Below, piece after piece: positions 20,264 to 46,297 of a DNA stretch of 64,000 nt. The notes under the pieces are model-generated. The model ran no database searches and was not told the DNA's origin. It was given only the letters and a program-made list of their open reading frames with translations. Each line of letters opens with the position of its first letter. The first letter of the stretch is position 1. The position numbers and the translations under genes were made by a program. This DNA is from Synechococcus sp. PCC 6312 (lineage in GTDB: Bacteria; Cyanobacteriota; Cyanobacteriia; Thermosynechococcales; Thermosynechococcaceae). Where the stretch lies: NCBI RefSeq assembly GCF_000316685.1, contig NC_019680.1:1675501-1739500 (forward strand), read 5' to 3'.

Positions 20264-21017
20264 TATAGCAAAACTGTGACGTTATGACTCTTATGGATGT
20301 ACTCGCTCATTTCTCAAGGGTACGCCCCTTTCTTGAATGCCCGAAGGGCTATAGGGGCGGGGAATCTACCCAAAGAGATTGAATCGGGAAAAACCTTTGT
20401 CTACTGGGCGGATCAGTGTCATCTCGTTTCAGGGGATATTTGTGGATATGCTTGGGGTAAAACGGATAAAAGAGTACAGGTTCCTATCAAAAATATAAAG
20501 GAAAGGCAAACATATTATGGTGCAATTAACTATGTCACAAGTCGCCTAATTGTAAGACCTTATTCCAATGGAAATAGCCAGAATACCATTCAGTTTATCA
20601 AAGAGATAAAGACGATTCATCCTAATCAGAAAGTTATTGTGATTTGGGATGGTGCAGCATATCATAGCAGTCATGATTTCCGTAATTATTTACATCAAGT
20701 CAATGGAGATAAGCCAGAACAAGAATGGTCTATTTACTGCATCAAATTAGCCCCATACGCACCGGAACAAAATCCGATTGAAGCAGTGTGGTTGCAAGCT
20801 AAAAACTTCTTGAGGAATGAGTGAAATTTATTGAAAAAATTTAAGATTACTAAATGGCTGTTTCAAGAGTTTTTAAGTCATTTTGTTCTCCATTCTTATC
20901 ATCTCAGTATGTATGGTATATTCTCATGAATAATTCATGTTTGCTATACTTCTTAGAAATCATTGGAATTCTTTGGGTCAATTTTTGAACTGTTGATCCT
21001 AAATTGAGAGATAAATC

Positions 21018-30000: not shown

Positions 30001-33000
30001 GCCAAATTCAGAGAAACAGTTGCTCCCAGGGGGTCGTCAAAGCGGTAGTAAATATCAGGGCTGTCTTGGAGTACTGAGTAGGCATAGGCAGGGGCTGTTG
30101 TATCACTCCAAAAAATGGCGGGATTGCCTTGAAATTCCCCTACTTCGAGACTGGCAATCGCAGATCCGCTGGCATCACCAACATTGGGAATAACAGTGGG
30201 TGTTGACCAGGCCTGGCTTTGTCCGTTCCAAATGGTTGTGTAAAGGCTCTGAGAGGTATCACCGGTTGCTGGATCAGGTAGGGCTGTATTCACCCATGTA
30301 GCAATCAATTCTCCTGAGGTTGTCCCGGCTCCCAAGGTCACTTTGGTATCTGTACCCACATTGGCAGCCAATAATTGCGGCGAACTCCAGGCCTGGCCAC
30401 TCGGAGCAATTGAGTAGTAGATGTCTGTAGCCAATAGGGCATCTGTAATCTCATCGCCGCTACTGTTGGGATTGAGATCACTGGCATCAGCATGGGCCCA
30501 GACCAACACTCGCACGGGATTGCCCAATTGATCCAAGTAATAGCCAATGGCCGGGTCAAAGTTAAAGCCACGACTCCCCTGGCCTGGGACAGGTTCCGGC
30601 GCACTCCAATCGGTTCCCGAAAGGACAGCGGTTTGCAGACGGGTGATGACAGCTTTGTTTTTGCTTTGATTCGTCAGGGGGGTAATATTGTCAATCCCAT
30701 CCGCCACCCAGGCCATGGTCGTGGCTGTTTGGAGAGTTTGATTAACAGGATAGGTAATCGAACTAATACTGGGGGGGCCGTCATTGACGAGATTAATTAG
30801 TTCTGTGGCAATGGGTTGGGCGGTTGCCGTTGCGCCTGTTCCGCCGCCGCCATTCTGACTGAAATCGAGGCTAATACCACTGGACTTGTATCCCTGCCCA
30901 CCGTTGAGAATCGTAATGTCAGTAATTTCCCCCTGAGTCACGCTAACAGATAGCAAAGCTGCTTCGGTACTCTCTCCTTTGGGCGTTATAACAAAGTAAC
31001 CCGATTTTCCGCCTAAGTAGTTCGTTCCTTTTTGGGTGATGTTGGCCTGGGTAATTTGTCCATTAGCATCTAATGTTACAGTAGCCGCTGCCCCAGTCCC
31101 GCCACTCAGGCCAAAGTCCAAATTTAGGGGCCGATTGCTATATCCACTCCCTTGATCTACGACCGTTACGTTGGTGATTGTGCCTTGGCTGACATAGACA
31201 GTCATTAAGGCATCATCGTTTGTACTACTCCCTGGTACATAGGTTTGAAAACTCCCACTCAGCCCATTGAGATAGCTGGAGCCACCTGTAGCTAGGTTGA
31301 TATAGCCAATTTGGGCAGTTGTGGTTGTCGTAATTCCCCCACTCGTGGTTCCAGATGCCTGTTGACTGATGGATTGCGAGAGGGGAGTTTGGTAGTGGTT
31401 GGCCCGGCCTGTGTAGGGGTTGTAGCCAACCGTTACTGTTCCTGGATTGGTGTCAGTGGTCTGACTGTTATTAGCGGCAGTGGCTAGAGATTGAGTACCG
31501 GCATCGCTAGAATCGGGGGTGTTGACGAGTGTACCACTGATACCCCAGTTGTAACTCCAGGTAAAGAACCCTGCTTGCAGATTGGCATTAATCCCGGCTT
31601 GTCAAGGAATTGTAAATGCCAGGTCAGGTTCTACTTCTAGCTCAAAGGTTAATCCCGCACTGGCTTGGGCCTGGGCCGTAAAAGTTTGATTAAGAATCCC
31701 TCAGGTTCCAGATAGCTTAACCGTCAGGGGCAGCCCAAACCCAAAGCCAAACTTCCCATAGTCACTTTCTGTGGGCCAAGGCCAGGGGGGCATAGTGATA
31801 TCCCAGGCCGAGATAATAATTGGAGCAGATGTTCCAAGACCAACTAGGGTTTGAACAATCGAGCCAGCTGCCCCAGCCGTCCCTTCATTTTTATCGTTAG
31901 CTGCGGGATATAGAAATGAAACGGCTGTGCCAAACTCACCAATACCCGTTAACCAACCTGGCTGATTCAAAATAAATGGAGCTTTCGTGCCAGCATTAGG
32001 TTGAGTGAACGTATAGCCTACTTCTAAGCCGAAGTCAAAGTCTGCTTCTGCCCGAAACTGCCCAATGCTGAAAGTCTTTGTGCCCAGATTCAGTTTATAT
32101 TGCTTAAACAGTTGTAAACCAAGCTCAAACGACCGTTGCAGACCCACGAGAGTTCCGGTGCTTGGACTATAATTAACCTGTCCCCCTGAATCGATTTGAA
32201 CTGCATTAACCCCCCATCCGCCAATGGAAAATAAGCTACCACTGCGAACACTAGATGAAGGCGAGACTCCACTGGCAGCAGCTTTAATGCCATCTGATTT
32301 GGTGTAGTCGGAAATATCCAGAGCTAATTTTGCTTTCAGGGCCTGGTGATTACCAGTCATGCCCAGATTCCCTGTTAATTGCAGGCCAAGATTACTGGTA
32401 TCACTCATCCACGGCACACCAATCCGGCCATCCACATTTTTATTTGGCGCACCGAAGTTAAGGTTAAAACCCCGTGTTACCCCGGCCGGGAAAGAGTTTT
32501 CGACAATGGGCTGACTTGGTTGGGATGGAGAACCGCCCGGTGTTATGCCTTGGGCCCCAGGCCCCAATGGATAATAGGTGGCTGTGTTGCCTGGATTCTC
32601 ATTGAAGGTTAGGTTAACACTTTGCCCGTTAAAAATCTGGAGACTGGGCTGCCCCTGATTCAGGTTGACGGAAAGATAGGTATGGTAAAGATCGGTGTCA
32701 TCCCGATTGGATTGAGCCGCATCTAGTCCCATTTGGGCAGGATTGATCGTGTACTGTGGGTCACGGGGATCAATCACCAGAGATTTCTGATAGACCACAT
32801 CCAGGAGTCCATCCTGAAGTAAAGCCGCATCGATGTTCTGATCTGCTACCCCGTCATGGGTTAATTGAACCGCATCTGACCACTCCAACTTGCCTGTGGC
32901 ATTGTAGCGCCCCACAGCAGCATAGACTTCCTTAGAGTTGCCAAGCCCTTGCTCCCAAAACGCAACCAGGCCTGGGGCGTATTCAATGTTTCCGCCTTCT

Positions 33001-33197
33001 AGGTAAGGGTAAAGGTCTCCGGCAATCAGCTTTAGGTTGGAGCCGCCCAGGGCGTTACTGATGGGGCTGGCCTGATCCCATGTCCCTGAATTTTTGTCAT
33101 AGATGGCATGGATTAACTGCCCGTTATTTTCCCAAACAATATGTTCGATACCTGCCACATCTACCGCAGTTGCTGCGAAGGAAGCGTAGGGATTCAT
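21018..33197 (-). pseudogene. Giant FG-GAP/LamG/Calx-beta/RTX/DUF4114 exoprotein, split by two TGA codons
   Basis: One frame of 4,059 codons runs from ATG 33197 to the stop at 21018, interrupted only by TGA at 31701-31703 (after KLSGT) and 31602-31604 (after LAFTIP). TGG in both places would give GTWGILNQTF and IPWQAGINAN. The N-terminal 500 codons form a beta-rich domain. A LamG-like domain lies at about codons 1070-1380, FG-GAP/VCBS repeats with DVNGDGIDDLLVGAP-type calcium loops at about 1690-2240 and in later blocks, and sialidase-like WS-P repeats between them. RTX nonapeptides (GDDTLLG type) lie near 3270-3340, a Calx-beta domain near 3500-3576 and a DUF4114 end (GGGDRDYNDMVLQ). There is no Sec signal. 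Such proteins are exported by type I systems and act at the surface. The long downstream frame (3,395 codons) is intact, so the stops are recent or read through. Confidence 0.85.
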
Positions 33198-33385: not shown

Positions 33386-36208
33386 ATGAGCCAGAGTCTT
33401 GAAATTACCGGAAAACTGACATCTACTTGGTTTGTCCAGGAGGGCTTTGCTGCGATCTTTTCCGTTCAATCTCAGCATTCAAGACAACAGCCCCTCTTTA
33501 TCATGCCTCAAGGCTCAATCATTTTTGGCTTGCCCGTGTGTGAGGAATTATGCGTCCGGGCCAGAGCCATTGGTAGCAGCAGGGTTACTCCCATAAATTT
33601 TGCCGAAGCAGATCCGTCTCTGGGAATTTTGCCAAAGCCGAGGCAGCAGTGGTTGGAAGTTCTCGCCCAGCAAATGTATGTTCGTCCAGAACTTGTCCAC
33701 CCTCATCCTTCCGGTTATGCCTTTGCACCCCAATTACCAATTGAACTAGGGCCTGGAGAGGTTTTCCGGCTTCCCCTAGAATCCTGTTATTGGGTTATGG
33801 TGCTGGCTGGGGAGGTATATTTTCAAGGCAATGTTCAAATCCCGGCCGGGAGCCTCTTCCCCCTCACTATGTACTCTTGGGTGTTAGCCAAAACAGCAGC
33901 AACCTTGACTTTGGAACCTTTTTTAGAATATCCACATCAACTGACTAGCCCTCAAATGACGGGTTGGCATTGGTTTGGGGAACAATACCTGGCCTGGTTA
34001 ATTGCTGCTGTTCAAGCCCAGACGGTTCAGGAGTTTGCCAAAATCGCAACTTACGAAACCAACCATCGCCAAACCCTGGAGAATGCTTATGGTCAATTTG
34101 ACAATGTTTTAGTTAAACGAACCTTAGGTAGCTCCCAGGCCAATCCCCTTAATGTGGCATTACATCGGTTAGGGAAAATTGCTGGTTTAGAGTTTTCAGG
34201 GAATCTTAAACTAGATACGTTCAACCTCAGCTTATCTGACCAGATTCAAGCTATTGCCCGTGCTTCCCGAATTCGAGTCCGACGGGTGCAGTTAGTGGGG
34301 CAGTGGTGGCGACAGGATTCCGGAGTAATGTTGGGGGTTATGGCCGAAACAGGAATTCCGATTGTCCTCACTCCCCAAAATAATCATTCCTATACAGTAT
34401 TTAATTCCGCAACTCAACTTACCTTACCTATCCTTGACTTTAAACCCAGTCAACTCGAACCTTCTGCTTATGTTTTCACCCGTCCTTTAGCACGGCGACT
34501 TCAAGGGGCTTGGAACTTGGTCAGGTTTGCCCTACATCGGCGGTGGCATCTATTGGGGCTGGTGTTGCTAATAGCTTTGGTGATGCAAGTACTTTTAGTC
34601 ATCATCCCCGCCCAGCTTTATCACATTTTGATCGACCAGGCCATTCCCGCAGCCAATTACACACTTTTGACTCAACTGGGAATCGGCCTCTTTGCTTCTG
34701 TAATTGCCGTGGCCTTCTTTCAGTTTTTGCAAGGAATGATCATCCTACAAGTGGAAACATGGGCAGAATTTGACACCCAAGCCGCCGTCTGGGATCGGGT
34801 CTTGGAGTTACCTGCTAACTTTTTTCGCAATTATTCAACTGGGGGACTCACAAACCGTATCTTTAGTGTCACCGAAATGCGTAAGCTCCTGACTGGCTCA
34901 ACTTTACAAGCGGTGATTACCGGATTAGTTTCCTTAGGGAACTTGGGGATGATGTTTTATCTCGACTCAACCCTGACCTGGATCGCCATTGGTTTAATGA
35001 CTGTCATTGTTCTGGTGACCTTTCTCCATGCTTGGTTTATTCTCAATATCTACGAAAAAATGCGGCAATTGACAGGTAATCTCTATGGCATGGTAGTGCA
35101 ACTGATGACAGCAGCAAAGACATTACAGGTCACGGGTGCTGTGCCGCGGGCATTCTTGAATTGGAGCAGCCTTTATAGTCAACAGCAACAATTAACCTTG
35201 GCCAGCCAAACTTGGGGAGATAGCCTGCAATTGTTTAATCAGGGGGCAACTCTCACCAGTACGGCGATTCTTTTTGGGGTGATTGGCTTTACAGTCGAAA
35301 GCGGTGAATTGTCCACGGGGAACTTTGTTGGTTTTAATACGCTTTATACTAATTTTTTCCAAAACGCGACTCATTTTGCTTATGCGTTGATTGGGCTGTT
35401 GCCTGTGGTCAGTTTGTGGCGACAAGTGGAACCGATCTTACAAACGCCCTTGGAAGTCAGTCCTCAGAGTTATGATCCTGGCCAACTTCAGGGTGCAGTT
35501 CAAGTTGTACAGGTCTGTTATCGCTATCAGCCTGATGCTCCATTAACACTGAATCAAATTAACTTGGAAGCTCGGCCGGGAGAATTTATAGCCCTAGTCG
35601 GCCCCTCTGGGTCAGGAAAATCTACTCTATTTCGCTTACTCCTCGGCTTTGATCAACCGGAAACGGGAGGTATTTTCTATGACGGTCAAGAACTGAGCCA
35701 GTTAGATTTACCCTTAGTTCGCCGCCAAATTGGCCTTGTACTTCAACACTCCCGTCTTTTACCAGGTTCGATTTTTGAAAATATTGCCTGTGGGGAAACA
35801 ATTAGTCGTGACCAGGCCTGGGAGGTCTTGGAGCAAGCCAATTTAGCCAAGGAAGTGAGCGAGTTACCAATGCAACTTGAAACCCGAATTAGTGAAGGCG
35901 GTGGAAATTTTTCAGGGGGACAGATTCAACGGCTTTTAATTGCGCGAGCATTAGCCCACAACCCGAAAATTCTCCTGTTTGATGAAGCGACAAGCGCCCT
36001 TGATAACCAGACTCAGGCCTTGATTACGGCAACGCTTAACCAACTCCAAATAACACGGATTATTGTTGCCCATCGCCTCAGTACCATTCGCCAAGCCCAG
36101 CGCATTTACGTCCTAGAGCAGGGGCAAATTCTTCAAGTCGGGACATTTGAGGAGTTAGTCTCTCAGCCAGGCCTATTTGCCAACTTAGCCCGCCGTCAAC
36201 TTGTTTAA
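33386..36208 (+). CDS. NHLM-type bacteriocin-system ABC transporter (peptidase-less)
   Basis: In this 940-residue protein the first 350 residues form a soluble region with a cyclic-nucleotide-binding- or cupin-like part (LELGPGEVFRLP; ESCYWVMVLAGEVYFQGNVQIPAGS split over several strands). Transmembrane helices cover about residues 385-680. The ATPase has Walker A GPSGSGKST, signature SGGQIQRLLIARAL and Walker B KILLFDEATSALD. This is the layout of the NHLM_ABC2 transporters that accompany C39-peptidase transporters in cyanobacterial precursor-peptide loci. It is first in the exporter operon, 46 bp before the HlyD-type gene and divergent from the giant exoprotein gene across 188 bp. Confidence 0.88.
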   Translation: MSQSLEITGKLTSTWFVQEGFAAIFSVQSQHSRQQPLFIMPQGSIIFGLPVCEELCVRARAIGSSRVTPINFAEADPSLGILPKPRQQWLEVLAQQMYVRPELVHPHPSGYAFAPQLPIELGPGEVFRLPLESCYWVMVLAGEVYFQGNVQIPAGSLFPLTMYSWVLAKTAATLTLEPFLEYPHQLTSPQMTGWHWFGEQYLAWLIAAVQAQTVQEFAKIATYETNHRQTLENAYGQFDNVLVKRTLGSSQANPLNVALHRLGKIAGLEFSGNLKLDTFNLSLSDQIQAIARASRIRVRRVQLVGQWWRQDSGVMLGVMAETGIPIVLTPQNNHSYTVFNSATQLTLPILDFKPSQLEPSAYVFTRPLARRLQGAWNLVRFALHRRWHLLGLVLLIALVMQVLLVIIPAQLYHILIDQAIPAANYTLLTQLGIGLFASVIAVAFFQFLQGMIILQVETWAEFDTQAAVWDRVLELPANFFRNYSTGGLTNRIFSVTEMRKLLTGSTLQAVITGLVSLGNLGMMFYLDSTLTWIAIGLMTVIVLVTFLHAWFILNIYEKMRQLTGNLYGMVVQLMTAAKTLQVTGAVPRAFLNWSSLYSQQQQLTLASQTWGDSLQLFNQGATLTSTAILFGVIGFTVESGELSTGNFVGFNTLYTNFFQNATHFAYALIGLLPVVSLWRQVEPILQTPLEVSPQSYDPGQLQGAVQVVQVCYRYQPDAPLTLNQINLEARPGEFIALVGPSGSGKSTLFRLLLGFDQPETGGIFYDGQELSQLDLPLVRRQIGLVLQHSRLLPGSIFENIACGETISRDQAWEVLEQANLAKEVSELPMQLETRISEGGGNFSGGQIQRLLIARALAHNPKILLFDEATSALDNQTQALITATLNQLQITRIIVAHRLSTIRQAQRIYVLEQGQILQVGTFEELVSQPGLFANLARRQLV

Positions 36209-36254
36209 GCTTAATTATCCTAGGTTTTAGTTCTCAACACTCTTTATACTCTCT

Positions 36255-37727
36255 ATGTCATCAGAAGCCCCACCTTCCAAGCTCACCTTCCGAGCCAAAG
36301 CCTTAGAAAACCTCTCTAGCTCAGATCTATTCCGTCAACGCTTAAATGTTTATCACCTCACCCCTTGGTTTGCCCTGTCTGTTCTGGGAACAATGGTGTT
36401 GGGGCTGCTGGCCTGGGGGATATTTGGGCGGATTCCTGTAACCGTGGATGGCCAAGGAATTATTCTCCGACCTCGCGAAGAGCGCGGTAAACCTCCGGAA
36501 ATTAGCTTTTTTGCTGCATCGGGGGAGGGACGCATTTCCCAAATTCTTGTCCAAGAGGGAGATGCAGTGAGTTCCGGGGAGTTGCTGGGAGAAATTGAAC
36601 AACCTGACCTAGCCTTTCAATTAGAAAATAAGCAACGGGAGCTGCAAGAATTAGTCAATCAGCAGAAATCCCTCAGGGGCCTGGAACAGGAATCCACAAG
36701 CCTCAGCGAGCGGGCAATTCTCATTAAAAAAGAAACAACCCAAGCCGAAATTGAATCCCTCCGAGAGCGAGCTACTTTTATCAAAACCCGCAAGCTCACG
36801 TCATTATCTGTTCAACAACAGGGATTAAGACAACAACAACAACGGATGCAAGCACTGGCTCAGTTACAAGAAAACAAAGTCTTACAGACGGAACCGTTGG
36901 TTAAGGAAGGGGCAATCTCTCAATCAGCGTTTATTCAAATTAAAGAAGAAGCTATTCGCACTGAAAATAATGTCTCAGAAATCACTTCCAATTTAGAACG
37001 GGTTAATGTCGAAATTGTCACAGCCAATGAAGAATACGACAGCACCCAAGAGCGAATTGCCAATCTCAAGGCCCAACTGGATGAATTGGACGGACAACTC
37101 ATCAATGTAGATTTACAAGATCAAACCCGAACTACAGAACGCACGCTTAAAATTCAGTCTATTAAAGGAGAACTCCAAGTCCTCCAGGCCACCTTCCGGC
37201 AACGCAGTCAAATCCGTAGCCCCCACACTGGCACAATTTTGGATATGTTTGCTTCAGTCGGTCAAATCGTCCAAGTGGGAACTCCGATTGGTCAAATTCA
37301 AGTAGCTGGCACCCAAGGCCCTTCCTTAACAGCATTGCTCTACTTCACACCTGGAGACGGTAAACGAATTACTCCCAACATGAAGGTCTCTGTCACGCCT
37401 GACACTGTGAAACGGGAAGAATATGGCGGTATTCAAGGACAAGTCTTATCGGTTTCTCCCTATCCTGTTAGCGAACTCTCAGCTCAGGAATTTACAGGCG
37501 ACAAAACCCTAGCCGAGGCTCTCACGGACAAGGGGCGAAAAATTGAGGTTTTTGTGGCCCTAGAAACTGACCCCAACACGAAAAGTGGCTATCGCTGGAC
37601 TGCTTCTCAAGGGCCTAACTTCAAAATTACCTCTGGCTCTATTGCCACAGCCGCCGTCACCTTAGAGGAAAACTCCCCAATTAGTTACGTTTTGCCAATT
37701 TTGCGCCAGTGGACAGGACTGTACTAA
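36255..37727 (+). CDS. NHLM-type HlyD-family secretion adaptor
   Basis: One N-terminal membrane helix (LSVLGTMVLGLLAWGIFG, about residues 42-60) precedes IPVTVDGQGIILRPREERGK, a lipoyl half (ISQILVQEGDAVSSGELLGE), long coiled coils (about 120-310), the second lipoyl half (RSPHTGTILDMFASVGQIV) and a C-terminal beta-barrel. It is 490 residues long, normal for the group. It links the inner-membrane ABC proteins to an outer-membrane channel, which is not encoded nearby. The stop is 2 bp before the PCAT start, so expression is coupled. Confidence 0.9.
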   Translation: MSSEAPPSKLTFRAKALENLSSSDLFRQRLNVYHLTPWFALSVLGTMVLGLLAWGIFGRIPVTVDGQGIILRPREERGKPPEISFFAASGEGRISQILVQEGDAVSSGELLGEIEQPDLAFQLENKQRELQELVNQQKSLRGLEQESTSLSERAILIKKETTQAEIESLRERATFIKTRKLTSLSVQQQGLRQQQQRMQALAQLQENKVLQTEPLVKEGAISQSAFIQIKEEAIRTENNVSEITSNLERVNVEIVTANEEYDSTQERIANLKAQLDELDGQLINVDLQDQTRTTERTLKIQSIKGELQVLQATFRQRSQIRSPHTGTILDMFASVGQIVQVGTPIGQIQVAGTQGPSLTALLYFTPGDGKRITPNMKVSVTPDTVKREEYGGIQGQVLSVSPYPVSELSAQEFTGDKTLAEALTDKGRKIEVFVALETDPNTKSGYRWTASQGPNFKITSGSIATAAVTLEENSPISYVLPILRQWTGLY

Positions 37728-37729
37728 CC

Positions 37730-39943
37730 ATGTCTGCCCCTATCAGTACACCCACTATTCTCCAAATGGAAGCTGTCGAATGTGGCGCTGCGGCATTAGG
37801 CATTATTTTAGGATTTCATCGCTGCTATGTTCCCCTGGCTGAATTGCGCCAGGCCTGTGGGGTGTCTCGGAATGGTAGTAACGCCGCCAATATTGTCAAA
37901 GCTGCATCTCGCTATGGATTGGATGCGAAAGGCTATCGCTTAGAATTAACCTCTACCCAGAAACTGACTCCTCCCTTTATTGCCTTTTGGGAATTTAATC
38001 ATTTTGTGGTGGTGGAAGGCTTTGGCAAAGACCAAGTGTATCTTAATGATCCCGCTGTTGGACGGCGACAGATTAGCCTGGATGAGTTTGATCGTTCCTT
38101 CACCGGCATTGTTCTCACCTTTACACCTCAGCCAACCTTTCAACCCCGTGGCCATGCCCCCAGTATTTGGCCCAGCTTGTGGCGGCGATTGCGGCAAAGT
38201 CGGGCGAGTCTGGAGTTGCTTTATTTAGTCCTAGTCGGCTTCCTTTTAACCATTCCGGGTCTAGTCATTGCTATTTTCTCTAAACTCTTTGTTGAAAATA
38301 TTCTCATTGAAAACCACCTAAATTGGTTGCGGCCATTCTTGTTGTTAATTGCCCTGGTTGCGGCCCTCAATTTATCCCTTACCTTTTGGCAATCCCAGGC
38401 CCTGAGGCGTTTACGCACCCGTTTAGCCATTCAATTATCCAGTCAGTTTATTGAGCATATTCTCTGTTTACCCGCCAGTTACTATGAGCAGCGTTCCGCC
38501 GGAGAAATTGGCAGTCGCGTCAGTTTGAATAATACGGTTGCTAATGTTCTATCTGGTGAACTAGCCAAAACAGTGATTGATAGCGTCATGATGATTGTCT
38601 ATGGCCTGGTCATGTTTACCTACAGTGTCCCGTTAACCTTAATTGCCATCGGCCTGGCTGGCGTGAATGCGCTGGGATTACGCTGGTTTGCCCGGCAACG
38701 TCAAGATACTAATTTACGGCTGGGGTTAGAACTCGGTCGGGCGATGTCTACAACCATTACTGGATTGCAAGCGATTGAAACCATCAAGGGATCGGGCCTG
38801 GAAACTTTCTTCTTTAATCGTTGGGCCGGCCTTTATACCAAAGCCATTAACTCTCAACAAGAACTTGCGATTCCCACCCAAACCATTAGTATCTTGCCTT
38901 CTGCCCTTAGCTCCCTCACTAATATGACCCTGATTGTCGTTGGTGGTATTCAGGCCATGCGGGGAGAAATGAGCATTGGAATGTTAGTTGCCTATCAAGC
39001 CCTAATGCAGCTATTCCTCGAACCCATTAACCGCCTCGTCTTGATGAGCAGTAGTATTCAGGAACTCTATGGGGATATTGCCCGCCTGGATGATGTCTTA
39101 GACAATCCCATTCCACCCGGTCAAGACTTTTTTCAATTTGCCAGTCCTACCACTCTTCAATCTCTAGAGACTCAATCCCCTCCCAACTCAATGGCAAAAT
39201 TAGAGGGGCAATTAACACTTAAAAACATTACCTTTGGTTATAGCCCGATTGACCCACCCCTGATTCAAAACTTCAATCTAACCCTAGCTCCCGGCGAACG
39301 AGTTGCCCTAGTTGGCGGATCCGGGTCGGGGAAAAGCACAATTGCCAAACTGATCCTAGGAGTCTATCAACCTTGGCAAGGCAGTATTTTATTTGATGAA
39401 CAGCCAAAGTTAGACATTCCCCGCGCCGTCCTCCATCACTCTATAGGCTATGTCTCCCAAGACAGCGTGATTTTCTCTGGGACTGTTCAAGACAACATTA
39501 CCCTTTGGGATCACACTCTGACAGATACCGATATTATCCAGGCCAGCATTGATGCCATGATCCACCCCAAGATTATGACCCTCCCTGCCGGATACCAAAC
39601 TCAACTGCTTGAAGGGGGCATGAATCTCAGTGGGGGAGAACGCCAACGCCTAGAAATTGCTCGAGCCTTAGTCCGCAATCCTTCCCTGTGCATTTTTGAT
39701 GAGGCCACCAGTGCCCTTGATGCCAATGTTGAGGAGCAAATTATGCAATGCCTCCAAATTCGGGGTTTAACCTGCTTATTCATTGCCCATCGCTTGAGCA
39801 CGATCCGGGACTGTGATCAGATTATTGTCATGGAACAAGGCCAGATCGTTGAGTCAGGAACCCACCAAGCATTATGGGAAGCCAAGGGGTTGTATCATCG
39901 GATGCTTTCTGCCCAAAGTGTTGAAGACTATACTCAAGATTAG
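37730..39943 (+). CDS. Peptidase-containing ABC transporter (C39 peptidase, PCAT)
   Basis: From the ATG at 37730, which I prefer to an upstream GTG inside the HlyD gene, this gives 737 residues. The N-terminal C39 peptidase has the catalytic Cys in MEAVECGAAALGIIL, His in FNHFVVVEGF and Asp in VYLNDPAVGRR. Six membrane helices follow (about 155-440). The ATPase has GGSGSGKSTIAK, LSGGERQRLEIARAL and CIFDEATSALD. It should cut substrates after a double glycine while exporting them. The family of GG-leader genes immediately downstream on the same strand are the obvious substrates. Confidence 0.93.
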   Translation: MSAPISTPTILQMEAVECGAAALGIILGFHRCYVPLAELRQACGVSRNGSNAANIVKAASRYGLDAKGYRLELTSTQKLTPPFIAFWEFNHFVVVEGFGKDQVYLNDPAVGRRQISLDEFDRSFTGIVLTFTPQPTFQPRGHAPSIWPSLWRRLRQSRASLELLYLVLVGFLLTIPGLVIAIFSKLFVENILIENHLNWLRPFLLLIALVAALNLSLTFWQSQALRRLRTRLAIQLSSQFIEHILCLPASYYEQRSAGEIGSRVSLNNTVANVLSGELAKTVIDSVMMIVYGLVMFTYSVPLTLIAIGLAGVNALGLRWFARQRQDTNLRLGLELGRAMSTTITGLQAIETIKGSGLETFFFNRWAGLYTKAINSQQELAIPTQTISILPSALSSLTNMTLIVVGGIQAMRGEMSIGMLVAYQALMQLFLEPINRLVLMSSSIQELYGDIARLDDVLDNPIPPGQDFFQFASPTTLQSLETQSPPNSMAKLEGQLTLKNITFGYSPIDPPLIQNFNLTLAPGERVALVGGSGSGKSTIAKLILGVYQPWQGSILFDEQPKLDIPRAVLHHSIGYVSQDSVIFSGTVQDNITLWDHTLTDTDIIQASIDAMIHPKIMTLPAGYQTQLLEGGMNLSGGERQRLEIARALVRNPSLCIFDEATSALDANVEEQIMQCLQIRGLTCLFIAHRLSTIRDCDQIIVMEQGQIVESGTHQALWEAKGLYHRMLSAQSVEDYTQD

Positions 39944-40161
39944 CCAAGTGGATGATACCAAATGGGTGATGTACTCTCCTCCTATTGCTAGGTTCTTCAG
40001 CAGGATATAAGTAATCAAAATATCAAGTCGTCCCCCCCCTATTTTTAGAATGCTATATTACAAATATCGAAAGAGAATAACACTCAGAATTCATTAAGAA
40101 AGCAGTTGACGTATTTAGAGTTTGAATGTTCCGAGCATCAAGTTTTATGGAGATAATTACA

Positions 40162-41007
40162 ATGAATACCGATCTAAATCAACAAGAACTCATTGAGCGG
40201 GAATTGACCCTAGATGAGCTAGCTGCTATCTCTGGCGGCAGCGAATTTACTGATTTCTTCAAAAAGATTGGTGATGATTTTGGTGAAGTTGGCGGCGTTA
40301 TGATTGCGGGAGGATATACGGTTGTTCAAGCCTGTAAGGGAATGATTGCTGAAATGACTGGTGATTTGGAAACAGCCAAAGACATTCAACAAAACACTAT
40401 GGATCGTGCAGAAAAACTTTACAACGATGTGAAAGATGGTCTTGGCACCAAGGTGTTAGGTGTGGTATCAACGGTCGGCATTGTTGGGGCTATCGCCAAG
40501 GGTGGCAAAATGGCCTTTGATGTGATTCGTACAGGAATTCGTCCAACGGATGTACGTCCAGTAAATCCGTTTTTAGATATCACCCTTGATTCAATTCCGT
40601 CTCATACCGGTAATACTGCGTACGGCAGTCCAACTGGTAGCTTTAACTCTAGCTTCAGCTTTTTAGAACAGAAAAACAGGCAACTCCAAGATATCTTTTC
40701 CGCCGAACAACTGCAAAAACTGAGTGAAGCAGGTTTCAACAAGAACGATACTGTCTATAACTATTTTGAAGTGAAAAATCTTCAATCTGCCACTGACTTA
40801 TCTAACCAATTGGGTTCCCAAGCTAACATTCAGGGGGCTTTTTTGGAAGTCAAGCAAGAGACAGGTAATGGCTTCATTATCAGGAACATTCCCATCATTA
40901 CCATCCAGGAGGTGAGTCAACCAGCTACTAACGAACCTAAACGGGAGAACGTTGGTGGGCTTAAGTTGACTGGCCCAGAAAAATATATAGCACAGCGGAT
41001 TTCCTAA
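40162..41007 (+). CDS. Double-glycine-leader precursor protein 1 (281 aa)
   Basis: The start ATG at 40162 follows GGAG. The 26-residue leader ends ERELTLDELAAISGG and fits the C39 cleavage rule. The core has an amphipathic module (GGYTVVQACKGMIAEMTGD, then DIQQNTMDRAEKLYNDVKD), a weakly hydrophobic Gly/Ala/Val segment (VLGVVSTVGIVGAIAKGG), a Ser/Asn-rich linker and a C-terminal domain (QDIFSAEQLQKLSEAGF ... GAFLEVKQETGNGF). The mature product of about 255 residues is far larger than typical GG-leader bacteriocins. It is the most divergent member of the local family. The frame is open 12 codons further upstream, without leader character. Confidence 0.75.
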   Translation: MNTDLNQQELIERELTLDELAAISGGSEFTDFFKKIGDDFGEVGGVMIAGGYTVVQACKGMIAEMTGDLETAKDIQQNTMDRAEKLYNDVKDGLGTKVLGVVSTVGIVGAIAKGGKMAFDVIRTGIRPTDVRPVNPFLDITLDSIPSHTGNTAYGSPTGSFNSSFSFLEQKNRQLQDIFSAEQLQKLSEAGFNKNDTVYNYFEVKNLQSATDLSNQLGSQANIQGAFLEVKQETGNGFIIRNIPIITIQEVSQPATNEPKRENVGGLKLTGPEKYIAQRIS

Positions 41008-41053
41008 ATTAAGGTTTGCAAGCAACGAGTTCCATCTTGAATTTATGGAGGGT

Positions 41054-41308
41054 ATGGCGATGGAAAATCAAGCACTTGAACGGGAACTCACCCCTGAAGA
41101 GTTGGAAGAAATCGCTGGCGGTTTAAGTTTGGGTGATTTTTGGGATGACACCAAGAAAAACCTATTAGGTCATGTATCCCCGCTCTGTCCAGTTACAGTT
41201 CCGAATGCGAGAGGTGAGACAATCGTAATCCATGATGCCTCACCAGGCCTACCAACTGAGGATGAGGGATGTAAACTTCCTATTGCTAGTAAATATGAAA
41301 ATGATTAG
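41054..41308 (+). CDS. Short double-glycine precursor with two cysteines (84 aa)
   Basis: GGAGG at 41047-41051 precedes ATG 41054 and ATG 41060; both give the leader MENQALERELTPEELEEIAGG. The core starts LSLGDFWDDTKKN, like precursor 4, then changes to an unrelated 45-residue sequence with two Cys (SPLCPVTVP and EDEGCKLPI) that could form a disulfide. It therefore looks either like a true small bacteriocin-sized precursor or a deletion product of a longer member. It lies about 45 bp after precursor 1. Confidence 0.65.
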   Translation: MAMENQALERELTPEELEEIAGGLSLGDFWDDTKKNLLGHVSPLCPVTVPNARGETIVIHDASPGLPTEDEGCKLPIASKYEND

Positions 41309-41369
41309 CTGTTAGTTGGTTTGAGAGCGATAAACAATTCGTTTAATAACAATCAATGGAGTTTTCGTC

Positions 41370-42323
41370 ATGACCAAGATCAATAACGAAAATCAAGAAC
41401 TTGAGCGGGAACTCACCCCTGAAGAGTTGGAAGCAATTGCTGGAGGACTGAATGTTGGGGACAGAATGGCAAAATTGGGTGGGGTGATGCATGGCAGGCA
41501 AGAAGGGGCCTCTGGCAATATTATTGGTGAACTGGGGGGGCGCGTTGCCCAGGCTGCTTACACTCTTAAAGAGGCGTTTAGGGGCTTCGGGGCCATGATA
41601 ATCGGTGACGACGAAACGATGGCAGACGTTCAGAAGAACACTATGTCTCGGGGAGAGCAAGTTTATCAAGATGTGAAAGACTCAACCGCAGGAAAGATTT
41701 TGGGAGGTTGTGTTCTTGTTGTCGGCACTGCTGCTGCTGGAGGGGCTATTGCATCTGGAGTACGGAGCATCGGCACTGCTACTATCCGCACAGCAGGTAC
41801 TCGTCCACTAATTCCAAATAGCGGTACCAATACACCGGCTTGGCCTGCTGGAACTCCAGGTTTTGGTGGCTCTCCGGCTGGATCCCTCGCTAATTCCTTT
41901 CATGATGTCCCTCTAGACCTTTATCCTGGCAAAGGTAGCTTTGCGATCACTGGGTTACAGATCAACCAGCAGTCGCCCATTGGTGAGCAGCTTGTTGAAA
42001 AATCGGCAGGGCAGTTTTTATCTGAAGATCAACTGAAGCAGTTTGGCATTCCTGCTGATGCGCGCGTTGTTGGCTATGTAGGTGCTAAAGAGGCTGATGC
42101 TGATTTCGTGAAGGAATTTAAGGCTACTCTTGGCCTGGGCGACAACGCAAAATTGGGCTATTTGCAGGTAAGTTGGTCACACAATGGCTCTCCAGTCCGG
42201 GACGTTGTGCCCATGATCGAAATGAACGATGCCCAGATTACCGCCAATGAACCTAAGAAAGAGGAGCTTACAACCCCTCAGTCAAATCATTTAAGTCGTA
42301 ATCGCTTCTACCATCCCCACTAA
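41370..42323 (+). CDS. Double-glycine-leader precursor protein 3 (317 aa)
   Basis: The 26-residue leader ends ERELTPEELEAIAGG. The core begins LNVGDRMAKLGGVMHGRQ, has the amphipathic module ELGGRVAQAAYTLKEAFRG and VQKNTMSRGEQVYQDVKDS, and a glycine-zipper hydrophobic segment (GKILGGCVLVVGTAAAGGAI, about residues 118-140). A Pro/Gly/Thr linker precedes the C-terminal domain (EQLVEKSAGQFLSEDQLKQF ... YLQVSWSHNGSPVRDVVPMI) and a basic His tail (SRNRFYHPH). The last 345 nt of the gene are nearly identical to precursor 5, so the two arose by recent duplication or gene conversion. Confidence 0.75.
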   Translation: MTKINNENQELERELTPEELEAIAGGLNVGDRMAKLGGVMHGRQEGASGNIIGELGGRVAQAAYTLKEAFRGFGAMIIGDDETMADVQKNTMSRGEQVYQDVKDSTAGKILGGCVLVVGTAAAGGAIASGVRSIGTATIRTAGTRPLIPNSGTNTPAWPAGTPGFGGSPAGSLANSFHDVPLDLYPGKGSFAITGLQINQQSPIGEQLVEKSAGQFLSEDQLKQFGIPADARVVGYVGAKEADADFVKEFKATLGLGDNAKLGYLQVSWSHNGSPVRDVVPMIEMNDAQITANEPKKEELTTPQSNHLSRNRFYHPH

Positions 42324-42333
42324 ATTTGGCTAG
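41979..42333 (+). repeat. 355-bp direct repeat, copy 1
   Basis: From attggtgagcag to aaatttggctag this segment matches 44020-44374 over the same length without gaps and with few mismatches. It covers the C-terminal domain of precursor 3 plus 10 bp after the stop. The identity ends abruptly after ggctag at both copies, where copy 2 runs into the truncated precursor 6. Confidence 0.85.
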
Positions 42334-42429
42334 TTTCAGGAATGTGATGCATTGACTCTCAGAACAACTTTTATTGCAATTGAGAGTCGAAGGAACCTTT
42401 TTTTACAATCCTTTTATGGAGCTTGGATT

Positions 42430-43263
42430 ATGACTGCAATGGAAAATCAAGAACTTGAACGGGAACTCACCCCTGAAGAGTTAGAGGCAATCGCTGGCGG
42501 CTACAGTTTCGGTGAATTTTGGGACGATACCAAGAGAGTAGCAGGGGCAATTCCTGGTGGAGTAGCGGCGGGTGGTTATGCCGTTGGTCAAGCCTTTAAG
42601 GCGTTGGGTGCCACTATTGCAGGCGACAAGGATACGGTGCGTGATATTGAAGAAAATGGCTTAGGTCGAGTGGGTCAACTTTACCGAGATGTGCGAGACT
42701 CTACTGCTGGGCAAATTGGAGGGGGTTTGATCATTGGTGCTGCTGCTGTTGTTGGAGGTTCGTATGTTGTCGGGGCCTTGGCTGGTAGTGCTGGTACTGT
42801 GGCAGGGGCTGGTGTCATTGTGATTGCCATAAGCGCATTGAATTCTCGAACTAATAGTGCTCCTTCAATTCCCATTGACAGAACTATTAGCTTCCAACAA
42901 GATTTTTCAGGTAAAAAATTAAACGATTTTTTCTCCTCAGACCAACTCAAGTCCCTTGGCTTCACCACTGACAGAGATTTCAAAATCGCTAGCTATCATG
43001 ATGGGGGTGTATGTCCAGACAATCTTAAAGAACAAATTGCGGCCGCTGGCTACACGGGTGAAGTTAAAGTTGGCTTTTTTCAACTGGTTTCACAAAACTC
43101 TAATGGCGTAGTCGAATCCATAGCTATACCTGTCATATCTGCCAATGAAGCCAAGAAAAATGAAGCCAAACAAGATGACTTTACACCACCTCAGTCAACA
43201 GGTGGTTTCCGTGGCTACGGCCGTCGATTAGATGGTCAGCGGCGCAACAGCACTCAAGGCTAA
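42430..43263 (+). CDS. Double-glycine-leader precursor protein 4 (277 aa)
   Basis: GGAG lies before ATG 42430. The 24-residue leader ends ERELTPEELEAIAGG. The core begins YSFGEFWDDTKRVAGAIPGG, then the amphipathic module (GGYAVGQAFKALGATIAGD, then GRVGQLYRDVRDS). A long glycine zipper follows (GQIGGGLIIGAAAVVGGSYV then VGALAGSAGTVAGAGVIVIA, about residues 98-140), the most membrane-like of the set. The C-terminal domain has FFSSDQLKSLGFTTDRD, and the tail DDFTPPQSTGGFRGYGRRLD is basic and Gly-rich. The C-terminal tail is shared with precursor 7 while its domain differs from precursors 3 and 5. Confidence 0.75.
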   Translation: MTAMENQELERELTPEELEAIAGGYSFGEFWDDTKRVAGAIPGGVAAGGYAVGQAFKALGATIAGDKDTVRDIEENGLGRVGQLYRDVRDSTAGQIGGGLIIGAAAVVGGSYVVGALAGSAGTVAGAGVIVIAISALNSRTNSAPSIPIDRTISFQQDFSGKKLNDFFSSDQLKSLGFTTDRDFKIASYHDGGVCPDNLKEQIAAAGYTGEVKVGFFQLVSQNSNGVVESIAIPVISANEAKKNEAKQDDFTPPQSTGGFRGYGRRLDGQRRNSTQG

Positions 43264-43386
43264 ATTAAATCTTGGCACGGGTGGGGCAAGCCTGAGAAAT
43301 TCGCTACCCTCGGCTTGGTTTTTGCCCTTATTTCGGTTGAGAGCTACAAACAACTTGTTCAATTATTTTTTAATGGAGATTACATC

Positions 43387-44364
43387 ATGACTACGATTAA
43401 CAATGAAAATCAAGACCTTGAGCGGGAACTCACCTCTGAAGAGTTAGAGTCAATTGCTGGGGGAATGAATGTTTGGGACAGAATGGCGAAATTAGGCGGG
43501 GTGATGCATGGCAGGCCAGAGCCAAATTCCATCGATCTTCTTGGTGAAGTGGGGGGGCGTGTTGCCCAGGGTGGTTACACTGTTGCCCAGGCCTTTAAGG
43601 GGGCATGGGCCGAGTTAACCGGCGACCTAGGCACGGCGGCTGACGTTCAGAAGAACACCATGTCTCGGGGAGAGCAGGTTTATCAAGATGTAAAAGACTC
43701 ACCTGCAGGAAAGATTTTGGGGGGAGTTGTGCTTGTTGTCGGAACATCTGCTGCTGGCGGGGCTATCTCATCTGTAGTCCGGACCGCCAGAACTACTACT
43801 GCTTCTGCTGCTAATCCCATCAGTTGGGGAACTACGCCCAGCCCTTCAATCGCTGGTGCACCACAACAATTCACTAGAGGCAGCATTGGAGAGATTGTGA
43901 AACAAGCACAACGTGAACACTGGGCTAATGGTGGCTCATTTAGTTCTATGCCTCGGACTGAATCTGTTTTCTCTTACAATGCGGTTATCTCAGGATTACA
44001 GGTAAACCAACGATCGTCGATTGGTGAGCAGCTTGTTGAAAAATCAGCAGGACAGTTTTTATCTGAAGGTCAACTGAAGCAGTTTAATATTCCGGCGGAT
44101 GCTCGCGTTGTGGGCTATGTAGGTGCTAAAGAGGCTGATGCTGATTTCGTGAAGGAATTCAAGACTACCCTTGGCCTGGACGACAACGCAAAACTGGGCT
44201 ATTTGCAGGTAAGTTGGTCACACAATGGCTCTCCAGTCCGGGACGTTGTGCCCATGATCGAAATGAACGATGCCCAGATTACCGCCAATGAACCTAAGAA
44301 AGAGGAGCTTACAACCCCTCAGTCGAGTCATTTAAGTCGTAATCGCTTCTACCATCCCCACTAA
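43387..44364 (+). CDS. Double-glycine-leader precursor protein 5 (325 aa)
   Basis: GGAG lies before ATG 43387. The 26-residue leader ends ERELTSEELESIAGG. The N-terminal module (MNVWDRMAKLGGVMHGRPEP) and amphipathic module (VAQGGYTVAQAFKGAWAELT) match precursor 3. The glycine-zipper segment is GKILGGVVLVVGTSAAGGAI. The linker differs from precursor 3 and includes SIGEIVKQAQREHWANGGSF. The C-terminal domain and His tail are nearly identical to precursor 3. The frame extends 24 codons upstream without leader features. Confidence 0.75.
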   Translation: MTTINNENQDLERELTSEELESIAGGMNVWDRMAKLGGVMHGRPEPNSIDLLGEVGGRVAQGGYTVAQAFKGAWAELTGDLGTAADVQKNTMSRGEQVYQDVKDSPAGKILGGVVLVVGTSAAGGAISSVVRTARTTTASAANPISWGTTPSPSIAGAPQQFTRGSIGEIVKQAQREHWANGGSFSSMPRTESVFSYNAVISGLQVNQRSSIGEQLVEKSAGQFLSEGQLKQFNIPADARVVGYVGAKEADADFVKEFKTTLGLDDNAKLGYLQVSWSHNGSPVRDVVPMIEMNDAQITANEPKKEELTTPQSSHLSRNRFYHPH

Positions 44365-44374
44365 ATTTGGCTAG
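44020..44374 (+). repeat. 355-bp direct repeat, copy 2
   Basis: Second copy of the segment at 41979-42333. Immediately after it the sequence enters the glycine-zipper part of a leaderless precursor (ARGKIVGGIALVIGGGVAGG), so a recombination or deletion event probably joined the 3' end of precursor 5 to the middle of another family member. Confidence 0.85.
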
Positions 44375-44900
44375 AGGAAAGATCGTAGGCGGTATTGCTC
44401 TTGTTATTGGTGGGGGCGTGGCAGGTGGAGCTGTTTCTGCTGGAGGCCGTGTGATCGTCAGTGCCACCACCGGGATACGCAACATAACACCGATTCTTGA
44501 ATCAGGTGCTCTTGGTGCTACTCCTAGCGTCCCGGCGGGTGCAATCAGTTTTCTACAAGTTAAGGAAGAAGCAACTTTAGGGCAGTTTGTTTCTGCAGAT
44601 CAACTCAAGGCCGCAGGCATTCCATCCAATGCCCGTATCGTCGGTTATGCAAGTGCTAGAGACACTGATAATTTGGTGCAGGAATTCAAGGCTACCTCTG
44701 GCTTGAGCGATGACGTAAAGCTGGGCTGTCTCCAGGTGGAGTGGTCTTATAACGGTTCTACTGTCAGCGATTATATGCCCATAATCGATTTGGGTGAGAT
44801 CAAAGAGAATGCTGTTGAGGAACCTAAACCTGCAACAGGCGGGATAAAGCTTACTGGGGGGAAATCTGGAATGACTCTTCAACGCATTGGGGAATCCTGA
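44367..44900 (+). pseudogene. Leaderless, 5'-truncated precursor 6 remnant
   Basis: An open frame from TTG 44367 begins with the hydrophobic zipper (GKIVGGIALVIGGGVAGGAV) and continues with a full C-terminal domain (TLGQFVSADQLKAAGIPSNA ... GCLQVEWSYNGSTVSDYMPI) and tail. The leader and amphipathic module are absent, and the beginning is fused to the 10 bp that follow the precursor 5 stop. Without a GG leader it cannot be a PCAT substrate. I see no good ribosome site. It is best read as a decayed member, though the domain reads openly, so decay is recent. Confidence 0.65.
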
Positions 44901-44952
44901 TCAAGGCTTGACTATTATCAAACTGTTCATCAATCATTACTCAGGAGACTTT

Positions 44953-45186
44953 ATGAACGAGACAGAAGAACAGGGCATTGAACGGCAACTCACCCCCGAT
45001 GAACTGGCTGCCATTTCTGGTGGTTTCAATTTAGATAGTCTATTGGGGAAGGTAGAGCCTCTCCGTATTGGGCTTGGTGCCATCGAACCCAAACAAGATG
45101 ACTTTACATCCCCTCAGCTAACGGGTGGTTTCCGTAGCTACGGCCGCCAACTCGATGGTCAGAGGCGGAACAACACACAAAGCTAA
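44953..45186 (+). CDS. Short double-glycine precursor 7 (77 aa), internally deleted
   Basis: GGAG lies before ATG 44953. The 24-residue leader ends ERQLTPDELAAISGG. The core starts FNLDSLLGKVEPLRIGLGAI and passes directly into the tail of precursor 4 type (KQDDFTSPQLTGGFRSYGRQ and LDGQRRNNTQS). The amphipathic, zipper and C-terminal domains are absent. It may be an internally deleted relic or a genuine short product of about 53 residues with a basic C-terminus. Confidence 0.65.
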   Translation: MNETEEQGIERQLTPDELAAISGGFNLDSLLGKVEPLRIGLGAIEPKQDDFTSPQLTGGFRSYGRQLDGQRRNNTQS

Positions 45187-45385: not shown

Positions 45386-46297
45386 ATGAGTCATGACATC
45401 TACAAATTGATTTGTCAGAAACCAAAAGACTGTAAACGCTTGATGGGTGTTAACTTTGAGCAACTAGAAGAGCTGATCGAACATTGTAAAAGATTGCATC
45501 AGATAAAACAAGAGGAGATTGAGAACCAGAAGAAACGAGTGATTCGAGCGGGCGGTGGTCAGTCTCCTATCTTGACCCTAGAAAACCAAATTATCTTAAC
45601 GCTACTCTATCTCAGACATTATTTAACTTTTCAACTGCTTGGTTTGATGTTTCACGTCAGCGAGTCCACTGCTCATAATGTCTTTAACTATTGGCAAATA
45701 CTCCTGGAGGAAGGACTATCACCTAGTCTTTTAGAACAAGTAAAAAAGTACCCGGAGGCTGGGGCTGAAACTCTGGCCAAATTAGTCAATCAAGAGTTAG
45801 TGATAGATAGCACAGAACAAGTCATAGAGCGACCTTCGAGCTATCAGGAGCAGAAGCGTACATATTCTGGCAAAAGGAAGAATTTCACTTTAAAAAATCA
45901 GTTAATTGTAAGTCCTGTGACTTTAGATATTATTGATGTGGTCGTGGGGATGCCAGGTCGGATAAGTGATATTAGTATCTGGCGAAACAGTCGAACTCGC
46001 TTTACCCTAGAGCAGTTCTTTATGGGAGATAAAGCTTATGTGGGAGAGAGACAAATTAAAACACCAACGAAAAAGCCTAAGAATGGAGAATTAACGCGTC
46101 AAGAGAAAGAAGATAACAAATCGTTTTCAGCACGACGTATTATCGTAGAACATTTGATTCGTTTTGTGAAAATATTTAGGATTATGCAAGAGCGATTCCG
46201 ACTTCCAATATCTCGATATGATTCAATTTTTCTAACTGTTTGTGGACTAGTGAGATTGCGATTGGGCTGTTTAGAGTTGAGATTAGTTAAACATTAA
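45386..46297 (+). CDS. IS5-like (DDE_Tnp_4) transposase
   Basis: This 303-residue protein starts MSHDIYKLICQKPKDCKRLM. A helix-turn-helix-like part (LTFQLLGLMFHVSESTAHNVF, about residues 75-95) precedes the DDE core: LVIDSTEQVIERP (Asp), VVVGMPGRISDISIWRNS, FFMGDKAYVGERQI (Asp) and RIIVEHLIRFVKIFRIM (Glu). These fit the DDE_Tnp_4 group of the IS5 family. The frame is intact. Element ends are not clear: ttccctata at about 45298 and its partial inverted counterpart taataggga at about 46352 are the best candidates. It separates the precursor array from the DUF2335 gene. Confidence 0.82.
   Translation: MSHDIYKLICQKPKDCKRLMGVNFEQLEELIEHCKRLHQIKQEEIENQKKRVIRAGGGQSPILTLENQIILTLLYLRHYLTFQLLGLMFHVSESTAHNVFNYWQILLEEGLSPSLLEQVKKYPEAGAETLAKLVNQELVIDSTEQVIERPSSYQEQKRTYSGKRKNFTLKNQLIVSPVTLDIIDVVVGMPGRISDISIWRNSRTRFTLEQFFMGDKAYVGERQIKTPTKKPKNGELTRQEKEDNKSFSARRIIVEHLIRFVKIFRIMQERFRLPISRYDSIFLTVCGLVRLRLGCLELRLVKH

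What the first reader, a model, noticed from the sequence alone, without database searches (positions are those of the whole stretch)
41979..44374. Cassette-like shuffling inside the precursor family
Seen: the last 355 bp of precursors 3 and 5 are nearly identical and gap-free, while linkers differ. Precursor 4 shares leader and amphipathic modules but has another C-terminal domain. Precursor 7 joins a leader directly to the precursor 4 tail. Precursor 2 shares only the first core residues with precursor 4. Inference: recombination between repeats diversifies or deletes effector domains while leaders stay constant, as in polymorphic toxin arrays.
Basis: partly seen in the sequence, partly recalled or inferred. 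Interest (0 to 1): 0.65.

Follow-up and report, generated by a model that had tools for sequence, protein, structure and literature searches.

The report
Mosaic array of exported cyanobacterial proteins
A cyanobacterium carries a row of related genes for exported proteins whose pieces have been copied, swapped and cut by recombination between neighbours, and one distant relative shows the same kind of swapping, but nothing found so far shows that the pieces are toxins.

Summary
Precursors 3 and 5 share a gap-free 355-bp 3' block with 17 mismatches, 180 bp of it with only 2, ending sharply at aaatttggctag; their linkers are unrelated. Synonymous divergence falls from 0.33 in the N-terminal half to 0.03 in the last 55 codons, so protein-level selection alone does not explain the step: recombination or gene conversion does. 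One other genome, in another order, has an orthologous three-gene NHLM exporter with two such precursors. They break at the same joint, and one carries the linker of precursor 5 on a C-domain more like that of precursor 4. The 'cassette' part is therefore supported. The 'polymorphic toxin' part is not: the C-terminal domains of precursors 3, 4, 5 and 6 are clearly one homologous family (precursor 1 weakly), no immunity gene fits between the genes, and no toxin family matches. aaatttggctag is the end of the copied tract, not a recurring site. Best reading: unusually long (277-325 aa) double-glycine precursors of an NHLM exporter, reshaped by unequal recombination. Function is unproven.

The parts
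33386..36208 (+). NHLM-type ABC transporter without peptidase (ABC2)
   Evidence: TIGR03797, 762 bits, cut-off 709
36255..37727 (+). NHLM-type HlyD-like adaptor
   Evidence: TIGR03794, 299.7 bits, cut-off 156
37709..39943 (+). NHLM-type ABC transporter with C39 leader peptidase (PCAT)
   Evidence: TIGR03796, 1001 bits, cut-off 853; Pfam Peptidase_C39 6e-36
40126..41007 (+). precursor 1 (likely start at the ATG at 40162; about 281 aa); leader IERELTLDELAAISGG, helical part, C-domain only weakly like the others, tail like that of precursor 6
41045..41308 (+). precursor 2 (at most 87 aa; starts at 41054 or 41060 also possible): leader and 12 core residues of the precursor 4 type, then unrelated sequence
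41370..42323 (+). precursor 3 (317 aa)
41784..41945 (+). linker of precursor 3, unrelated to that of precursor 5
41979..42333 (+). 355-bp 3' block of precursor 3, copied in precursor 5 (17 mismatches; 2 in the last 180 bp); similarity begins at 41946
42430..43263 (+). precursor 4 (277 aa); C-domain a divergent homologue of that of 3/5
43387..44364 (+). precursor 5 (325 aa)
43801..43986 (+). linker of precursor 5, homologous to the linker of gene B in G035
   Evidence: Z 13.2; 40 of 57 bases
44020..44374 (+). copy of the 355-bp block in precursor 5; its last base is the joint with headless gene 6
44367..44900 (+). precursor 6 remnant (177 codons from a TTG): no leader, begins inside the Gly-rich segment (xRGKIVGG), then linker, C-domain and tail
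44908..44938 (+). 31-bp upstream element of precursor 7, identical upstream of gene B in G035
   Evidence: 2 of 388 class genomes, one site each
44953..45186 (+). precursor 7 (77 aa): leader of the G035 type, about 21 residues, then the precursor 4 tail
45386..46297 (+). transposase of an insertion sequence next to the array (neighbour, no role shown)
   Evidence: Pfam DDE_Tnp_4 5e-35, HTH_Tnp_4 6e-18

Best explanation
This is a tandem family of long double-glycine precursors made for the adjacent NHLM-type exporter. The C39 peptidase should cut after GG and pass a mature protein of about 250-300 residues through the HlyD-linked exporter. The mature protein would have a helical, glycine-rich N-terminal part, a variable linker, a small alpha-beta-alpha-beta-beta C-domain and a charged tail. 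The array changes by homologous recombination between its repeats. Shown by sequence: precursors 2/3 and 4/5 look like a duplicated two-gene unit (both pairs have dS near 0.4); the 3' end of precursor 5 was later overwritten by that of precursor 3; the same tract ends at a joint with a beheaded precursor 6. Inferred order: a deletion first fused the end of precursor 3 (at ggctag) to the inside of gene 6 on one chromosome copy; a crossover between that precursor 3 and precursor 5 on an intact copy then gave the present array. Linkers and C-domains were also re-paired between lineages, as the second genome shows. Export and cleavage are inferred from the transporter and leaders. A membrane-active (bacteriocin-like) or cell-surface/matrix role is a guess, and I rate the two about equal.
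For: Exporter: all three proteins pass curated NHLM cut-offs. The leader fits the GG-leader pattern (L-x-x-E-L-x-x-I-x-G-G, recalled) in 6 of 7 precursors; the 5 exact hits of a 15-base leader motif in the whole genome all lie in this array. Recombination: P3-P5 pS is 0.33 (codons 1-138), 0.24 (204-262) and 0.03 (263-317); 42 of 20000 permutations reach the N-half versus 204-317 difference; max-chi2 0 of 2000; identity stops abruptly at 42333/44374, in non-coding DNA. Duplicated unit: dS 0.40 for P2/P4 (32 codons), 0.44 for P3/P5 (138 codons). Second genome G035: orthologous exporter (C39 73%, HlyD 69%, ABC2 56% aa identity) with two precursors. They share the leader and a 134-bp block that starts within 15 bases of the P3/P5 joint; best 120-column window 0.85 against 0.59 overall, 0 of 2000 shuffles. 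C-domain quartet A+P5|B+P4 preferred, the other two topologies AU p 0.007, although B has the P5-type linker (Z 13.2). C-domain model: 71 of 129 residues at pLDDT 70-90.
Against: The N-terminal half does not by itself reject the C-domain topology (AU p 0.063 with LG, 0.067 with WAG), so the cross-genome swap rests on the linker and C-domain. Only two genomes carry the family. Gene B of G035 has two frameshifts, near a G run and a T run, so it may be a pseudogene or mis-sequenced. The order of the two steps and the donor are not proven. No expression, cleavage or export data exist here. The full-length structure model was useless (mean pLDDT 36.9).
Confidence: 0.72

Rival explanations
1. Polymorphic toxin array: a constant leader and stalk with exchangeable toxic C-terminal domains, silent cassettes (gene 6) and matching immunity genes.
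For: Headless gene 6 looks like a silent cassette; modules are re-paired between genomes.
Against: C-domains of 3, 4, 5 and 6 are homologous, not a set of unrelated toxins. No toxin or immunity family matches at the thresholds used. Gaps between genes are 2-123 bp, and no coding-strand ORF of 40 codons or more lies wholly between array genes. An immunity gene is stated to be a key feature of such systems (PMC3482391, passages read).
Confidence: 0.07
2. Plain tandem duplication with uneven selection: the C-terminal block is just the most constrained part and no recombination is needed.
For: dN is low in the block (0.04) and in the leader (0.07).
Against: Synonymous sites also drop, to 0.03, in the last 55 codons, and the identity runs 10 bases past the stop codon before stopping sharply. 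Selection on protein does not make an unrelated linker between two related halves.
Confidence: 0.06
3. Decaying array: recombination is real but the result is debris. Genes 2, 6 and 7 are deletion leftovers, and only 1, 3, 4 and 5 work. (Compatible with the best explanation; it differs on the consequence.)
For: Gene 6 has no leader; 2 and 7 are short; gene B of G035 is frameshifted; an insertion sequence lies beside the array.
Against: All seven window frames are open. Genes 2 and 7 keep leader, GG and upstream region, and the 31 bp before gene 7 are identical in another order, which suggests constraint or recent exchange.
Confidence: 0.35
4. Functionally, the products are secreted matrix or biofilm proteins like EbfG1-4 of Synechococcus elongatus rather than antimicrobials. 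(Compatible with the best explanation; it concerns function only.)
For: EbfG proteins are GG-leader proteins in a tandem set that need a C39 peptidase transporter (PMC4997328, passages read); no immunity gene is needed.
Against: EbfG precursors are about 9-10 kDa (same passages); the long products here are about three times longer. No sequence comparison with EbfG was made.
Confidence: 0.3

Closest known systems
NHLM bacteriocin export loci (TIGR03794, TIGR03796, TIGR03797; PMC2887384)
   Same: All three exporter genes are present side by side and pass the curated cut-offs; several GG precursors follow.
   Different: Leaders match neither the nitrile-hydratase-like nor the Nif11-like models; no modification enzyme was seen among the neighbours scanned; precursors are long.
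Cyanobacterial bacteriocin clusters, group V (PMC3140520)
   Same: C39 ABC transporter, second ABC transporter without peptidase, HlyD, and about 3 or more precursors.
   Different: Reported precursors are 28-164 aa overall and 28-151 aa in group V; here 277-325 aa for the long ones.
EbfG1-4 and PteB of Synechococcus elongatus (PMC4997328)
   Same: Tandem GG-leader proteins exported with the help of a C39 transporter.
   Different: Small (9-10 kDa precursors); no mosaic structure described in the passages read.
Polymorphic toxin systems (PMC3482391)
   Same: Change by recombination; a headless C-terminal cassette behind the full genes.
   Different: No immunity genes, one homologous C-domain family, no known toxin domain.
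Prochlorosin precursor families (PMC10783134)
   Same: Conserved leader with variable core; recombination proposed as the source of diversity.
   Different: Nif11-type leaders, short lanthipeptide cores, ProcM enzyme.

Membership tests
NHLM/PCAT export locus | C39-ABC, HlyD-like and second ABC transporter genes together | tested here: met
   TIGR03796 1001 bits, TIGR03794 300 bits, TIGR03797 762 bits, all above cut-off
NHLM/PCAT export locus | substrates with a double-glycine leader | tested here: met
   6 of 7 array genes have ...EL..I.GG leaders; gene 6 does not
NHLM/PCAT export locus | leader is actually cleaved and product exported | not testable with these tools
   needs mass spectrometry of medium and cell surface
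NHLP / Nif11 precursor family | match to the NHLP or Nif11 leader models | tested here: not met
   no such model among NCBIfam matches up to E 1 for the seven precursors
Cyanobacterial group V bacteriocin cluster | C39-ABC plus ABC without peptidase plus HlyD | tested here: met
   definition from passages of PMC3140520
Cyanobacterial group V bacteriocin cluster | short precursors (28-151 aa) | tested here: not met
   precursors 1, 3, 4, 5 are about 281, 317, 277 and 325 aa; 2 and 7 are 87 and 77
CTB family cyanobacterial bacteriocin (NF038167) | match above the curated cut-off | tested here: not met
   only precursor 2, 12.7 bits against 32
Polymorphic toxin system | immunity gene beside each toxin gene | tested here: not met
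   gaps of 2-123 bp; no coding-strand ORF of 40 codons or more lies wholly between array genes
Polymorphic toxin system | unrelated toxic C-terminal domains behind a constant N-terminus | tested here: not met
   C-domains of 3, 4, 5, 6 homologous, pairwise Z 8 or more; precursor 1 weak, Z 1-4
Polymorphic toxin system | known toxin family match | tested here: inconclusive
   no match in Pfam, NCBIfam, PHROGs, PADLOC, but unknown toxins exist
EbfG biofilm proteins | sequence relation to EbfG1-4 | not tested
   EbfG sequences were not fetched
PDZ-like C-domain (lead only) | profile or fold match | tested here: inconclusive
   some PDZ chains among weak fold matches (VIA Z 2.8 at best; Foldseek E 0.8); hhalign to 8 PDZ domains of the same genome no better than controls

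The most novel reading that the evidence does not exclude
A so far undescribed class of long double-glycine proteins, exported by an NHLM machine, in which leader, linker, C-domain and tail are traded at fixed joints within one genome and between cyanobacterial orders. It would be a surface or secreted variation system built by recombination, without immunity genes, with headless copies serving as a donor store.
Probability: 0.22. Interest if true: 0.65.

Novelty: new variant of a known kind. Interest (0 to 1): 0.43.

Why it matters
It gives a clean, base-resolved example of recombination reshaping exported GG-leader proteins in a cyanobacterium, and shows the same joint used in a second order. 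The long proteins are about twice the longest precursor in an early survey of cyanobacterial bacteriocin clusters (PMC3140520) and have a C-domain with no family or confident fold match. If the variation is selected, it would be a route by which a strain changes what it displays or secretes, testable by sequencing the locus in sister strains.

Tried and rejected
Relatives: only one other genome carries the precursor family. Tallies: profile A2 at E <= 0.01 in 8 of 388 class genomes, of which only the own genome and G035 match beyond a leader or a weak stretch (the other six, G011, G092, G178, G211, G215, G236, have best E from 2.2e-4 to 0.008 and were not followed); 1 of 386 phylum genomes, the own one; 1 of 29 in the family and in the order; 0 of 63 in the order of G211; 1 of 1 in the order of G035. 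These sets overlap. None in genome contigs, viral contigs, plasmids or phages.

aaatttggctag as a recombination site: rejected. Exactly 2 exact matches in the window, both the tract end; 14 with up to 2 mismatches where shuffles give 8.8 (sd 3.1).

PDZ-like C-domain: some PDZ chains appear among weak fold matches and the strand-helix-strand-strand order looks alike, but hhalign gave probability 0.2, within the range of 17 control windows (0.04-0.43). Kept only as a lead. Foldseek against PDB and the viral library found nothing at E <= 0.001; profile search of solved structures best E 0.4.

Origin of the unrelated part of precursor 2 and the middle of precursor 7: no convincing match in the window or the second locus.

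Promoters or terminators as module borders: 7 promoter-like against 7.3 expected, 6 terminator-like against 5.5.

Literature for a described array of this kind: searches gave none in their listings; this covers only open-licence papers. One search used a strain name guessed from genome size; the identity of the strain was not tested.
Full report
What is there. The window is part of a 3.72-Mb genome in two contigs, with no other genome of its genus held. At 33386-39943 lie the three genes of an NHLM-type exporter, all above curated cut-offs. Directly behind follow seven precursor frames on the same strand. Six of the seven begin with a GG leader. Precursors 1, 3, 4 and 5 are about 281, 317, 277 and 325 residues long, 2 and 7 are 87 and 77, and frame 6 is a 177-codon frame without leader that begins inside the Gly-rich segment. 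An insertion-sequence transposase follows at 45386.

Architecture. Alignment shows leader, helical part, Gly-rich segment, linker, C-domain and tail. The tails pair as 3=5, 4=7 and 1~6. The C-domains of 3, 4, 5 and 6 are clearly homologous (pairwise Z from 8.1 to 72); precursor 1 is only weakly similar (Z 1.1 to 4.1). No precursor reaches a Pfam or NCBIfam cut-off; the weak matches (for example Bacteriocin_IIc, 16.9 bits against 27.1, on precursor 4) mostly cover the leader and the first core residues, and PHROGs and PADLOC gave nothing convincing.

The 355-bp block. Precursors 3 and 5 align gap-free over 41979-42333 / 44020-44374 with 17 mismatches of 355; the stretch 42154-42283 is identical, and the last 180 bp hold 2 mismatches. 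Similarity begins at 41946 and stops at 42333, 10 bases past the last base of the stop codon of precursor 3. Synonymous divergence is 0.33 in codons 1-138, 0.24 in 204-262 and 0.03 in 263-317. The N-half versus 204-317 difference was reached by 42 of 20000 permutations, and the max-chi2 by 0 of 2000. Constraint on the protein is not expected to lower synonymous divergence in this way, so the block was most likely copied later than the genes were duplicated. The pairs P2/P4 (32 codons, dS 0.40) and P3/P5 (138 codons, dS 0.44) are about equally old, which fits one duplication of a two-gene unit; the small codon numbers leave wide errors.

The joint with gene 6. The copied tract ends at 44374, and from 44375 the sequence is the inside of gene 6. 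One joint therefore carries both changes: a precursor 3 end on precursor 5, and the loss of the head of gene 6. A simple history is a deletion that fused the end of precursor 3 to gene 6 at a few shared bases, followed by a crossover between that precursor 3 and precursor 5 on an intact copy. This is inference; the ancestral gene 6 is not known.

A second genome. G035, the only held genome of its order, has the same exporter: C39 transporter 73%, HlyD 69%, second ABC transporter 56% identical in protein, 66-69% in DNA. Two precursors, A and B, lie between the C39 and the second ABC gene, so the gene order differs from the window. A and B share the leader (83% of 117 bp) and a 134-bp block (84%) that starts within 15 bases of the P3/P5 joint, and are otherwise poorly alike. 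In the C-domain, A groups with P5 and B with P4 (other quartets AU p 0.007). Yet B carries the linker of precursor 5 (Z 13.2), which precursor 3 lacks (Z 0.7). In the N-terminal half the favoured quartet is A+P4|B+P5, but the alternative is not rejected (AU p 0.063 and 0.067). Gene B has two frameshifts and may be dead or mis-sequenced.

An upstream element. A 31-base stretch just before the start of precursor 7 (44908-44938) is identical before gene B. With up to 3 mismatches allowed it occurs in 2 of 388 class genomes, once each. The leader that follows is less alike. Either the element is constrained or the region moved recently between lineages.

Reach of the family. Searches found no third genome; counts and misses are given under Tried and rejected. 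The family is rare or very divergent elsewhere.

How it most likely works. The leader is cut by the C39 domain and the mature protein exported; this follows from the families and was not tested. The C-domain model has 71 of 129 residues at pLDDT 70-90, ordered helix-strand-helix-strand-strand, with no confident fold match. A toxin reading lacks immunity genes and diverse C-domains. An antimicrobial and a surface/matrix role remain about equally likely.

Comparison. The locus is an NHLM export locus by its exporter. It differs from the surveyed cyanobacterial clusters by precursor length: 28-164 aa there (PMC3140520, passages read). Polymorphic toxin systems are said to be marked by immunity proteins (PMC3482391, passages read), which are missing here. 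EbfG proteins (PMC4997328, passages read) share the export logic; their sequences were not compared. NHLP/Nif11 families (PMC2887384, passages read) share the exporter, not the leader. Prochlorosin families (PMC10783134, passages read) share the idea of recombination.

Verdict. The sequence observation is confirmed, the recombination inference is supported, the toxin analogy is not. A new variant of a known kind.

Noticed in passing
44908-44938: 31-bp element before precursor 7 is identical before gene B of a genome in another order, while the exporter genes are only 66-69% alike in DNA; 2 of 388 class genomes have it.
   Followed up: partly
21018-31205 (-): Open frame of 3395 codons with FG-GAP repeats, Calx-beta, a weak RTX repeat match and a C-terminal DUF4114; a giant surface or secreted protein divergent from the exporter.
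   Followed up: no
31701-33197 (-): 498-codon frame without any Pfam match at E 0.001 between the giant protein and the exporter.
   Followed up: no
L038 12169-11183 (-): Gene B of G035 has two frameshifts, near a G run and a T run: pseudogene, phase variation or assembly error.
   Followed up: no
L038 7208-17232 (-): In G035 the precursors lie between the C39 transporter and the second ABC transporter; in the window they lie after the C39 transporter.
   Followed up: no
41045-43800: Precursor pairs 2/3 and 4/5 look like one duplicated two-gene unit of about equal age.
   Followed up: partly
20297-20824 (+): Frame matching a DDE_3 transposase domain, a further mobile element in the window.
   Followed up: no
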